DNA of 64,000 nt from Paraburkholderia agricolaris (GTDB taxonomy: Bacteria > Pseudomonadota > Gammaproteobacteria > Burkholderiales > Burkholderiaceae), in assembly GCF_009455635.1 (NCBI RefSeq), contig NZ_QPER01000002.1, positions 1,922,001 to 1,986,000 on the forward strand, in the 5' to 3' direction. The translations under genes were made by a program, and so were the position numbers. Below are positions 60,694-63,692 of the stretch, piece by piece; within the stretch, counting starts at the first letter, position 1, and each line of letters starts with the position of its first letter. The notes below the pieces were generated by a model. The model worked only from the letters and a program-made list of their open reading frames with translations. It did not search any database and was not told the DNA's origin.

Positions 60694-61596
60694 TCAGCTG
60701 TGCTGCGCCGTCGGTGCCCGGCGCACCTTCATGACGCTGCGCAGACCTGACAATAACGGTGCGCGCACCGTGCCCGGCGAGCGGCCGAAGCTCTCCGTGA
60801 TGCGGTCGAGAATGATCGCCAGCATCACCACCGAGAGACCGCTTTCAAAGCCAAGACCGATATCGAGCCGCTGAATACTCGCCAGCACGTCGTTGCCGAG
60901 ACCGCCGGCGCCCACCATCGAAGCGATGATCACCATCGAGAGCGCCATCATGATGGTCTGGTTCACACCCGTCATGATCGACGGCAGTGCATTCGGAAAC
61001 TGCACCTTGTACAGCAATTGCAGCGGCGTGCAGCCGAACGCCTGCCCTGCTTCGACGATCTCGCGATTCACATGCTTGATACCGAGCGAGGTGAGACGCA
61101 CGGCGGGCGGCATCGCGAAGATCACCGTGGAGAGAATCCCCGGCACGCGGCCGAGACCGAACAGCATCGCGGCCGGAATCAGGTAGACGAACGCGGGCAT
61201 GGTCTGCATCAGGTCGAGCACAGGGCGCACGATCGTTTCCACGGTGCGGCTCTTCGCGGTCCAGATGCCCAGCGGCACGCCGAGCAGCAAGCTGATCAAG
61301 GTCGACGAGAGCGTGAGGCCGAGTGTAATCACCATCTGATCCCAGAACCCGGTGCCGTAGATCAGCAGCATCGCGAGCAAGGTGAACAGCGCGAAACGCC
61401 AACCCACTCGCCACAGACCGACGCCGACAAAAAACGCCATCAACGCCCACATCGGCACTGCTTGCAGGCTGTGTTCGATCAGCGCGGCAAAACTCTCGAT
61501 GACCTTGCCGATGGAGTCGAAGGTTTTCGCGTCGTGGTCGAGCAGATAGTGAACGCCGTGATCGACCCAGGCGCCAAGTGGAATGATTTCAGACAT
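60694..61596 (-). CDS. choW: Choline ABC transporter permease
   Basis: About 300 residues from ATG 61596, overlapping the choV stop by 8 bp (ATGTCTGA). Six or seven membrane spans; QTMPAFVYLIPAAMLFGLG and the EAA loop EAGQAFGCTPLQLLYKVQFPNALPSI (in parts) are typical of OpuAB/ProW permeases. It forms a homodimeric channel for choline and, with other binding proteins, betaines. Confidence 0.94.
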   Translation of the reverse strand: MSEIIPLGAWVDHGVHYLLDHDAKTFDSIGKVIESFAALIEHSLQAVPMWALMAFFVGVGLWRVGWRFALFTLLAMLLIYGTGFWDQMVITLGLTLSSTLISLLLGVPLGIWTAKSRTVETIVRPVLDLMQTMPAFVYLIPAAMLFGLGRVPGILSTVIFAMPPAVRLTSLGIKHVNREIVEAGQAFGCTPLQLLYKVQFPNALPSIMTGVNQTIMMALSMVIIASMVGAGGLGNDVLASIQRLDIGLGFESGLSVVMLAIILDRITESFGRSPGTVRAPLLSGLRSVMKVRRAPTAQHS

Positions 61597-62767
61597 GAGA
61601 ACCTCTATGGCGCGTGAGAACATGCAACACGTTCGTCTTGTTGACCGAACCGCAGTAGGAGCCATCCGCTTCCACAACCGGCAGCGGCGCCCGGCTCGCG
61701 ACTACGCGCTCGACGACGTCGTCCAGCGGCGTGGTGCGACGGATGCATTCAACGTGATTGAGTTGTGGCGAAGCGCTACCCGTCGCATCGCGGCACACGA
61801 AGCCGCGAATCTTGCGTTCGGCGTCGAGCACGAACGCGTATTCCGCGCTGCCGTTGAGCGTCGCGGCCACGCTCGAGGCGTCGATCTGCGGCGAATGCTG
61901 CATGAGCGGCACCGCATCCGTTTGCATCAGATCGCCCGCTGTCAGATAGCGGCTGGTGTCGATGCCTTCGAAGAACGCGCGGACATAGTCGTCGGCGGGG
62001 TTCGTGATGATTTCCTGCGGGGTGCCGATCTGCACCACCTTGCCGCCTTCCATGATCGCGATCCGGGTGCCGATGCGCATCGCCTCTTCCAGATCGTGCG
62101 AGACGAACAGGATGGTGCGTTGCTGCTCGCGCTGCAGATCGAGCAGCACGTTCTGCATTTCCTTGCGCTTGAGCGGATCGAGCGCCGAGAACGCTTCGTC
62201 CATGATCATCAGCGACGGATTGACTGCCAGCGCCCGTGCCAGACCCACGCGCTGCTGCATGCCGCCGGACAGTTGGGCCGGCAACTTTTCCGCAAACGGC
62301 GCGAGGCCGACCTGTTCGAGCACGGCCATGGCGCGCTTCTCGCGCTCCTTCTTGCCGACGCCCGCCACTTCCAGCCCGAACGCCGCGTTGGAGAGCACCG
62401 TGCGCTGCGGCATCAACGCGAAGGACTGGAACACCATGCTCATGTCCTTGCGGCGCAACGCGGTGAGTTCCGAGCGCGGCACGCTCGCCACGTCGCGGCC
62501 GTCGATCAGGACTTTGCCGGCGGTCGGTTCGACGAGCCGGTTGATCAGGCGAATCAGCGTCGACTTGCCGGAACCGGACAGGCCCATCAGCACGAAGATC
62601 TCGCCTTCCTTGACTTCGAACGATACGTTGTGGACACCGACTATCTGACCGGTGCGCGCGAACACTTCCTCTTTGGTTGCGCCACCTGCCAGCATGCCGA
62701 GCGCCTGTTTCGGACTGGTGCCGAACACCTTGCACAGCCCTTCAACCACGACCTTGGGTGAATTCAT
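61589..62767 (-). CDS. choV: Choline ABC transporter ATP-binding protein with CBS domains
   Basis: About 392 residues from ATG 62767 (AGGAGAGCG site); the frame runs upstream into the repeat array but without a ribosome site. Walker A GLSGSGKSTLI (about residue 62), signature LSGGMQQRVGLARAL, Walker B LMIMDEAFSALDPL, then C-terminal CBS pair (about 285-390) as in OpuAA/ProV, where it senses ionic strength. It powers choline import. Confidence 0.95.
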   Translation of the reverse strand: MNSPKVVVEGLCKVFGTSPKQALGMLAGGATKEEVFARTGQIVGVHNVSFEVKEGEIFVLMGLSGSGKSTLIRLINRLVEPTAGKVLIDGRDVASVPRSELTALRRKDMSMVFQSFALMPQRTVLSNAAFGLEVAGVGKKEREKRAMAVLEQVGLAPFAEKLPAQLSGGMQQRVGLARALAVNPSLMIMDEAFSALDPLKRKEMQNVLLDLQREQQRTILFVSHDLEEAMRIGTRIAIMEGGKVVQIGTPQEIITNPADDYVRAFFEGIDTSRYLTAGDLMQTDAVPLMQHSPQIDASSVAATLNGSAEYAFVLDAERKIRGFVCRDATGSASPQLNHVECIRRTTPLDDVVERVVASRAPLPVVEADGSYCGSVNKTNVLHVLTRHRGSHV

Positions 62768-62781
62768 TGAACGCTCTCCTT

Positions 62782-62977
62782 TGTCGACCGCAGTTAGCGC
62801 TTTAGCGCTTACTGCGGTCCCATGCAAAGCTGTCGACCACAGTTAGCGCTTCAGCGCTTACTGTGGTCCCATGCAAAGCTGTCGACCGCAGTTAGCGCTT
62901 CAGCGCTTACTGTGGTCCCATGCAAAGCTGTCGACCCGAGTTAGCGCTTTAGCGCCTACTCCGGTCCCATGCAAGCC
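62782..62977. repeat. Four tandem 49-bp hairpin repeats upstream of choV
   Basis: Units start at 62782, 62831, 62880 and 62929. Each starts TGTCGACC and contains two 9-bp arms (GACCGCAGT / ACTGCGGTC in unit 1) around TAGCGCTTTAGCGCTT, itself self-complementary. Units differ mostly by paired changes: position 5 of the arm, G-C in unit 1, is A-T in unit 2; position 6, C-G, is G-C in unit 4; unit 3 has a G-T wobble. The array ends 14 bases before the choV start, so it would form the 5' leader of choVW mRNA. 49 is not a multiple of three, so it is not coding. Confidence 0.9.
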
Positions 62978-63692
62978 AATTGCTGCAGTGGCGGACGTCT
63001 GTCCGCGCTGTGCATACATAGTTGCCAGAAAAAAGTACGCCTAGCCGACTATTTGCGACAACCACATGTGGAAATACGACACCGCTCTCGCGCGGATGCC
63101 GGCAAGCGGCGATCAAAGCCCTGTTGGGCAAGGGTTTGCGAGGTGTCGGAGGGATCAGCCGGGCGTGTCGCGCCAGAGCAAGTGGGCGTGCTCCGGTGGA
63201 AAAAAGACGTGCATGGAAGACGTTGCCGGCAAACTTGCGGCGATGCAGCAAGCACACTGCCGCTCAGCGGGCGCGATTGCGCAGCCGTGGCCGTCCCCGA
63301 TGATCAATGCTCGATGCTCAAGATCGCGTGCAACAGACGATCCGCCCGCGAAAAATACCAGATCGCAAGGCCGCCCAGCACCGGATACATGCAGCACAAG
63401 CGCGCGAGCGACCAAACCTCAGCAGAAAAGCTCATTGCATTGACCGCCCAGGGTGGAGGTTCGTCGGCAAAAATTCGAAATGGCGCGATCTGGCTACAAG
63501 TTGCCGGTTCAGGCCGAAAAATGCTGAGGGTTGCACCCGACAGAGGAAAAACGAGCCGTGCACACGATCCATGGTGCACGACTTTCATTACATTAGTCTT
63601 AAGGGCGGCCGACGTCACTTCGGGTTAGCCATATCGGCTCCCGCCCCAACGCTGCTGTCACGAGATTGACACGCCCATGAGCACCCGCGAGT
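62978..63692. other. Region without a convincing gene
   Basis: 715 bp. Several open frames of 60 to 220 codons overlap on both strands, but none has a recognisable domain, a good ribosome site or a steady codon bias. It should hold the choV promoter. A short dyad TGTCA-CGAGAT-TGACA lies at 63656-63671, just past the stop of the right-edge MFS gene. ACGACA and TCGCGCGGATG at 63076-63097 weakly resemble the word set of the other control regions. Confidence 0.5.

What the first reader, a model, noticed from the sequence alone, without database searches (positions are those of the whole stretch)
62782..62977. Four tandem 49-bp hairpins with compensatory changes in the choV leader
Seen directly: four contiguous 49-bp units, each an inverted repeat with 9-bp arms. 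Unit 2 changes both partners of arm position 5 (G-C to A-T), unit 4 changes both partners of position 6 (C-G to G-C), unit 3 keeps pairing by a G-T wobble. Covariation within one array means the fold, rather than the sequence, has been kept. The array starts 14 bases from the choV start codon in the transcribed leader. It may be an mRNA stabiliser, an attenuator, a REP-like mobile palindrome, or a protein-binding array for the choline operon. I do not recognise the unit from any named family.
Basis: partly seen in the sequence, partly recalled or inferred. Interest (0 to 1): 0.7.

Follow-up and report, generated by a model that had tools for sequence, protein, structure and literature searches.

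The report
Dispersed hairpin repeats before ribosome-binding sites
The four hairpins in front of this choline-transport gene are tandem copies of a small repeated DNA palindrome, scattered through Burkholderia-related genomes, that usually sits exactly in front of a gene's ribosome-binding site, so it probably spreads by inserting at that signal.

Summary
The array is real: four head-to-tail 49-bp palindromic units at 62782-62977, just upstream of choV. It is not a choline-specific element. The unit is a dispersed repeat: 53 clear matches in the window's genome (six are one copy per rrn operon), found in 89 of 97 sampled genomes of the genus, 101 of 299 of the family, and 0 of 291 others sampled in the order.

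The striking feature is placement. The end GGTCGACA abuts the Shine-Dalgarno (SD) of the next gene on the sense strand at 88 of 119 sampled array ends, against 0 of 119 on the other side. The genes are unrelated (112 Pfam families in 104 proteins). Relatives carry empty alleles with the native SD intact. At atpG the difference is an exact 48-bp indel without target duplication, and the state changed repeatedly. Copies also nest in each other's loops and multiply in tandem, as at choV.

Best reading: a Burkholderiaceae-specific REP-like mobile palindrome that inserts 5' of purine tracts, most often SDs. No mover is identified; the resident Y1 transposase does not track with it. An effect on choV is unproven. 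Arm covariation is strong but shows no clear preference for pairing on the mRNA strand.

The parts
62782..62830 (-). unit 1 (nearest choV): 49-bp palindromic unit, its 3' end GACA one base from the SD
62831..62879 (-). unit 2: two-sided change at arm position 5 (G-C to A-T)
62880..62928 (-). unit 3: G.T on the plus strand, A.C mismatch on the mRNA strand at arm position 5
62929..62977 (-). unit 4 (5'-most in the mRNA): two-sided change at position 6, C.C mismatch at position 5; 46 bp plus 3-base flank
62975..62986 (-). 5' flank GCAGCAATTGGC; a number of copies elsewhere have GCAAC(N3-5)GTTGC here, a possible small hairpin
   Evidence: by eye
62776..62780 (-). Shine-Dalgarno AGGAG of choV, directly 3' of unit 1
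   Evidence: same motif in empty alleles
61589..62767 (-). choV, ATP-binding subunit of a choline/betaine/proline ABC transporter (392 aa)
   Evidence: TIGR01186 above its cut-off; TIGR03415 378 bits, below its 483.75 cut-off
63007..63080 (-). block conserved upstream of choV in filled and empty alleles; probable promoter/regulatory region
   Evidence: by eye

Best explanation
The choV array is a four-copy tandem expansion of a small non-coding mobile palindrome (unit 46 nt, repeat 49 bp) confined, in our samples, to a few Burkholderiaceae genera. The element inserts, without target duplication, immediately 5' of a purine tract. In intergenic DNA that tract is mostly a Shine-Dalgarno sequence, so most copies sit in sense orientation directly before the SD of the next gene. 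Once there, a copy can be lost precisely, accept another copy in its hairpin loop, or multiply head to tail, as at choV. SHOWN: dispersal, SD abutment, empty alleles with intact native SD, an exact 48-bp indel at atpG, recurrent change of state, nesting, arm covariation. INFERRED: that the site is chosen at DNA level (rather than selection keeping only SD-adjacent copies), that empty alleles inside filled clades are precise losses, and that a hairpin-recognising single-strand enzyme (HuH, IS200/IS605 or REP-transposase-like) moves it. In choV mRNA the array would add hairpins before the SD; whether that changes expression is unknown, and any effect is probably modest, because 19 of 40 choV leaders read lack a detectable SD-abutting unit.
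For: Own genome: 60 model matches at E<=0.01, 53 of them clear (E<=5e-4), six of these the rrn copies. Genus 89 of 97, family 101 of 299 genomes in 7 of 25 genera, zero for the reversed pattern; outside the family 0 of 291. Placement: 88 of 119 array ends abut SD + start + ORF, 0 of 119 on the other side, 73 of 2380 random positions. In the own genome 25 of 32 non-rrn loci lie before an SD and start: 15 of 22 by script, L029 by eye, 9 of the 10 further model loci by eye. Mixed genes: ChoV, MraZ, LpxD, FlgC, ExbD, thiolase, AtpG, ThiC (some names from reading the sequences). Empty alleles with native SD: choV, atpG (GATC|AAGGAG in L207 against GATC|48 bp|AAGGAG in L187), a flgC-like gene (L069 against L009 and L119), rrn spacer (L217, L219). 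Recurrence: at least 14 changes (6 forced by starred branches) on the atpG tree of 70 genomes, 8 (3 forced) on the choV tree of 40. Thirteen non-SD sites have purine-rich 3' flanks (73 of 104 bases; left flanks of that class 0.50).
Against: No transposase identified. The one Y1/RAYT-like gene occurs in genomes and genera without the element, and 0 of 30 fetched RAYT-like loci has a unit within 1.5 kb. Exact SD abutment could also come from selection for a function beside the SD. Some 3' flanks are not purine-rich (L066, L088), and nested, tandem and composite copies have GC-starting flanks. The trees rest on 500-900 columns and are weakly resolved, and exchange of leaders between strains could mimic precise loss.
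Confidence: 0.68

Rival explanations
1. A cis-acting RNA module: the hairpin in front of the SD is retained because it stabilises the mRNA 5' end or tunes translation, and copies elsewhere are lost.
For: Sense-strand SD abutment, stable predicted fold, arm covariation; predicted SD accessibility is lower in filled than in empty atpG alleles (0.34 against 0.56, 44 and 26 rows, p 1.9e-7, not corrected for relatedness).
Against: No accessibility difference at choV (0.41 against 0.48, 21 and 19 rows, p 0.33). No clear preference for G.T over A.C on the mRNA strand. Unrelated genes. 19 of 40 choV and 26 of 70 atpG leaders read lack it. Copies also sit in the rrn spacer and before terminator-like hairpins. 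No Rfam family at threshold.
Confidence: 0.2
2. A transcription terminator or attenuator. A 49-nt palindrome in one Burkholderia 5' leader was reported to terminate transcription in a reporter (PMC6045580, passages only).
For: Same length as the published stem-loop and also in a 5' leader; stable hairpin.
Against: No T-run follows the stem and no terminator-like site was found around the array. Copies lie between atpA and atpG and before 23S rRNA in all six rrn operons, where termination should be costly (inference). The published palindrome lies at -73 to -25, so it does not abut the SD as here; its letters were not compared with this unit.
Confidence: 0.08
3. A DNA site array for a regulator or nucleoid protein of the choline operon.
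For: Head-to-tail palindromes upstream of one gene.
Against: The same unit precedes many unrelated genes, arm letters vary while pairing is kept, and the array lies between the conserved upstream block and the SD and is absent from 19 of 40 choV leaders read.
Confidence: 0.03

Closest known systems
CGTC-tagged REPs (Di Nocera et al. 2013, PMC3733652; abstract and sections 6 and 15 read)
   Same: Short dispersed palindromes with an unpaired 5' tag, often TGTC, and a CCA tail; the plus strand here reads TGTC-stem-CCATG. That paper found no dedicated transposase for them.
   Different: Longer interrupted stem (9 bp, mismatch, 5 bp), first pairs not both A/T, head-to-tail and nested copies rather than head-to-head dimers. 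Those REPs lie close to the 3' end of the upstream gene at varying distance from the downstream one; this element abuts the downstream SD. The word Burkholderia does not occur in that text (count).
GTAG REPs / BIMEs with TnpA-REP (RAYT) (PMC8266576; abstract and introduction read)
   Same: Long stem with a conserved irregularity (as in group 2), dispersed intergenic palindromes; insertion without target duplication would suit single-strand cleavage.
   Different: No GTAG tag; tens of copies rather than hundreds; no unit near the resident Y1 gene (0 of 30) and no co-occurrence with it.
Bacterial MITEs (recalled)
   Same: Short, non-coding, inverted-repeat, mobile-looking.
   Different: No target-site duplication at the one exact indel examined; no parent IS identified (none searched for).
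Array listed as CRISPR in P. terrae (PMC5968390, Table 4, passage)
   Same: The printed 25-mer GCGTAAGCGCTAAAGCGCTAACGCC shares this unit's core with changed outer arms.
   Different: Listed there without cas genes; more likely this repeat family (inference from the letters).

Membership tests
GTAG REP / REPtron | GTAG tetranucleotide 5' of the stem | tested here: not met
   32 units: mRNA-strand end GACA in 23, GGCA in 6, GACC in 3, so the other strand starts TGTC, TGCC or GGTC
GTAG REP / REPtron | cognate tnpA-REP flanked by the repeats | tested here: not met
   0 of 30 fetched Y1/RAYT-like loci (of 58 genomes with the gene) have a unit within 1.5 kb
GTAG REP / REPtron | repeat abundance goes with presence of the transposase gene | tested here: not met
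   PF01797 in 283 of 299 family genomes, including genera without the element
CGTC-tagged REP | unpaired CGTC/TGTC/CCTC tag at one end and CCA-like tail at the other | tested here: met
   other strand: TGTC in 23 of 32 units, CCA after the stem in 29 of 32 (against text)
CGTC-tagged REP | 8-9 bp stem with A/T first two pairs and a 4-5 nt loop | tested here: not met
   loop is 4 nt when folded, but first pairs are G-C and A-T and the stem is 9 bp + mismatch + 5 bp
CGTC-tagged REP | mostly head-to-head dimers, near 3' ends of genes | tested here: not met
   head-to-tail arrays, nested copies, SD abutment
MITE | target-site duplication | tested here: not met
   atpG L187/L207: exact 48-bp indel with at most 1 nt repeated; nested copies repeat GC(T), which may belong to the unit
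MITE | ends shared with an autonomous IS | not tested
   no IS library searched
IS200/IS605-like single-strand transposition | strand-specific insertion beside a fixed short target, precise excision | tested here: inconclusive
   one orientation relative to the SD and clean empty alleles, but no enzyme or intermediate; offset of AG/CT varies
cis-regulatory RNA family | match to a described family | tested here: not met
   window: best naRNA4 22.5 bits against gathering 59.5; 7 other loci: only rRNA and tRNA
cis-regulatory RNA family | pairing kept on the RNA strand (G.U over A.C) | tested here: not met
   75 G.T against 90 A.C; 70 against 52 without pair 11-24
Intrinsic terminator | T-run after the stem | tested here: not met
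   0 sites in 62700-63300

The most novel reading that the evidence does not exclude
A start-site-homing mobile palindrome: a 48-49 bp hairpin DNA, moved as single strand by an unidentified enzyme, that recognises the Shine-Dalgarno purine tract (CTCCT on the strand that carries the TGTC tag) as its target, inserts in one orientation directly upstream without target duplication, and is excised precisely. It has placed the same leader hairpin in front of dozens of unrelated genes in a genome, including core operons, as well as in rrn spacers, and keeps multiplying in place by tandem and nested copies.
Probability: 0.35. Interest if true: 0.8.

Novelty: new variant of a known kind. Interest (0 to 1): 0.62.

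Why it matters
REP palindromes elsewhere are reported mainly behind genes (PMC3733652); one placed to the base in front of ribosome-binding sites is unusual. It would explain variable hairpin leaders across Burkholderiaceae operons, it provides natural empty/filled pairs for testing what a leader hairpin does to expression, and it makes the open question of how REP-like palindromes spread testable, because target, orientation and junctions are defined. It also warns against reading such leaders one at a time as CRISPR arrays, terminators or gene-specific regulators.

Tried and rejected
RAYT/Y1 transposase as the mover: family search, co-occurrence and neighbourhood; not supported, though not excluded, because such genes are described as single-copy and housekeeping-like (introduction of PMC8266576). 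Choline regulon: rejected by gene diversity. SD occlusion as a general function: lower predicted accessibility at atpG only, none at choV; the choV part sorted all 40 rows as empty because the test stretch was too short and was redone. A fixed CT cleavage rule as for E. coli REP: the first AG after GTCGAC is at offset 0 in 64 of 153 and within 2 in 118 of 153, too loose to claim. The idea that L013-L018 were an insertion sequence: rejected, they are the six rrn operons (on L013; the flanks of all six agree). The first empty-site screen mixed true pairs with intragenic and unit-unit matches; only pairs read by eye were used. One search's looser counts (91 of 190 in the sample, 14 of 30 own, 15 of 54 choV) included internal units and chance matches and were replaced. 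Of the 31 failures, 16 are one composite with another repeat and four (L112, L115, L131, L151) abut an SD by eye; the count is left at 88. The 13 non-SD flanks leave out L053, L092 and L115 (SD near or adjoining) and two sites that the script filed as tandem (L066, purine-poor; L107, purine-rich). One search took stems of exactly 34 nt with at least 22 of 34 letters equal to a paired consensus, which may favour paired units slightly, and its totals leave out pair 10-25 (the constant mismatch). In one search one row (G035) was scored filled by eye where the script found no unit. Literature: no description of this unit found in that library; subscription papers are not covered. In PMC5688073 (passages) and PMC12306157 (abstract and outline) I saw nothing on it.

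Full report
OBSERVATION. The minus strand of 62782-62977 holds four head-to-tail units of TTGCATGGGACC-arm-AAGCGCTRAAGCGCTAA-arm-GGTCGACA with GCT spacers, period 49. The last unit ends one base before AGGAG, which lies 8 bases before the choV ATG. Each unit folds as a 9-bp stem, one mismatch and a 5-bp inner stem (two of the four units with a further mismatch), -17.6 to -25.1 kcal/mol depending on unit and strand. The whole strand folds far below shuffles (z -10.7), but its minimum-energy form pairs units 2-4 (in mRNA order) with each other, so four separate hairpins are not the predicted optimum. Two of the three claimed pair-keeping changes hold. The third, the G-T wobble, is on the strand opposite the mRNA; in the mRNA it is an A.C mismatch. 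Unit 4 has a further C.C mismatch.

A DISPERSED FAMILY. BLAST finds the unit at about 30 loci of the window's genome. A covariance model built from 32 units gives 60 matches at E<=0.01. Of these 53 are clear (E<=5e-4), six of them one copy in each rrn operon; the other seven are one opposite-strand match to a counted unit and six equal weak matches (E 0.0099) near the rrn operons. With up to 3 mismatches the unit pattern occurs in 89 of 97 sampled genomes of the genus and 101 of 299 of the family, in 7 of 25 genera; the pattern read backwards occurs in none of them. In an order-wide draw 4 of 300 genomes match, all four among the 9 of this family; 0 of the 291 others do. A named scan stopped at its limit with 120 stretches (125 exact matches); the 80 titles printed are Burkholderia, Paraburkholderia, Caballeronia or Trinickia. 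Copies per genome range from 0 to 123 in the samples.

PLACEMENT. In those 120 stretches I took the 3' end of each array: 119 ends, with 3 more too near a stretch end. At 88 of 119 the end GACA is followed at -1 to +4 nt by an SD, then a start codon and an ORF. The same test on the other side and strand gives 0 of 119, and random positions 73 of 2380. Of the 31 failures, 16 are one composite in which the unit lies inside another repeat, and four more abut an SD by eye. In the window's own genome 15 of 22 non-rrn BLAST loci qualify by script and L029 also by eye. The model search added ten loci (two of them also weak rows and one listed); nine of these lie before an SD and start, eight directly and L328 through the outer arm of a nested copy (by eye). 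The tenth, L323, precedes an A-run and a terminator-like hairpin. That makes 25 of 32 non-rrn loci. The 104 proteins downstream of SD-abutting copies (own genome and sample together) match 112 Pfam families at E<=1e-5, among them LpxD, MraZ, ExbD, flagellar rod proteins, thiolases and transporters; AtpG and ThiC are named from reading the sequences. This is no regulon.

EMPTY ALLELES. For choV, 40 leaders were read: the 30 best matches and 10 more. 21 carry an SD-abutting unit or array (up to 4 units by script, at least 5 counting nested ones in L171 by eye), 19 do not, some of these with decayed remnants (L170, L179). Empty alleles read for example ...CCACGC-GAGGAGAGCATTCAATG (L159), filled ones place AGC..TTGCATGG...GACA(N) before the same AGGAGAG (L157, L166). 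For atpG, 96 of 97 genomes have the region; I read 70 and scored 44 filled and 26 empty. L207 reads GCTGCTTCGATC|AAGGAGCAAGCA; L187 has exactly 48 more bases at the bar and is otherwise the same from the atpA end on, with no duplication beyond one ambiguous C. One lineage (L265) carries a different, nested insertion at the same SD. On the coding-sequence trees the state needs at least 14 changes for atpG (6 forced by starred branches) and 8 for choV (3 forced). Precise loss, repeated gain or exchange of leaders between strains could all contribute. In the 16S-23S spacer the unit lies 18 nt before mature 23S (on L013; the other five operons have the same flanks), and relatives such as L217 and L219 lack it with the GAGACACACCCG flank intact.

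NESTING AND TANDEMS. Whole units lie in the loops of others (for example L023, L028, L054, L060, L070, L083, L158, L171), mostly with GCT or a variant on both sides. Many tandem copies are spaced by GCT or GCG, others by longer GC-starting spacers. This suits a mobile sequence that can use its own loop as a target, plus slippage for tandem growth (inference).

WHICH LEVEL. If an RNA fold were the thing kept, G.U should be tolerated more than A.C on the mRNA strand. Over 132 distinct 34-mers there are 75 G.T and 90 A.C (70 and 52 when pair 11-24 is set aside), while Watson-Crick pairing at position 5-30 is 109 against 51 expected. Symmetric renewal of both arms fits DNA-level processes, such as template switching in palindromes (PMC8794818, listing only), or a hairpin-recognising enzyme. 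Outside SDs the 3' flanks are also purine-rich: 73 of 104 bases at 13 sites, among them the rRNA spacer and runs of A before terminator-like hairpins; two sites missed by that count pull in opposite directions (L066, L107). I take this as modest support for DNA-level targeting of purine tracts, with SDs the commonest such tract between genes (not counted here).

FUNCTION. No common effect was found. Predicted SD accessibility is lower in filled atpG leaders (0.34 against 0.56) but not in choV (0.41 against 0.48, p 0.33). A published 49-nt leader palindrome in another Burkholderia was reported to stop transcription in a reporter (PMC6045580, passages). Its identity with this unit is not established and, from its printed position, it does not abut the SD.

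COMPARISON. The plus strand reads TGTC-stem-CCA, as the CGTC superfamily of REPs does (PMC3733652), but stem, arrangement and position differ. GTAG REPs and their transposases fail on tag, neighbourhood and co-occurrence. No Rfam family matches the unit at threshold. A 25-mer with the same core was printed as a CRISPR repeat without cas genes in P. terrae (PMC5968390). Searches in the held library found no description of the unit. I rate it a new variant of a known kind: a REP-like palindrome with an unusual, SD-abutting insertion site.

Noticed in passing
L041, L055, L078, L094, L137 and similar (Trinickia, B. catarinensis): The unit lies inside another repeat (GCCCCCTCGGGGGG-AGCTT[unit]GCGAACG..AGTGAGCGTGGGGG) that, read on the other strand, in several cases starts at an SD-ATG; a second start-associated repeat family may exist (16 of the 31 failures).
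   Followed up: no
L013-L018 (rrn operons of the window's genome): One unit before mature 23S rRNA in all six operons; the spacer varies between relatives, and L218 and L226 carry nested copies there.
   Followed up: partly
PMC5968390 Table 4, P. terrae strains: A repeat listed as CRISPR without cas genes has the core of this unit; probably a false CRISPR call.
   Followed up: no
window 62991-63080: Strongly conserved block upstream of choV (63007-63080) followed by an inverted repeat GCGGACnnACGTCCGC (62991-63006); likely promoter or regulator site, no sigma-70 consensus found.
   Followed up: no
G000:C1:4425529-4426290 (L031, L292): Y1-transposase-like gene (254 aa) found in 58 of 58 genus genomes, with no NCBIfam match at E<=1e-20 and a second copy at 57-64% identity in some genomes.
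   Followed up: partly
L164 choV leader: A different palindromic insert appears to interrupt the unit in this relative.
   Followed up: no
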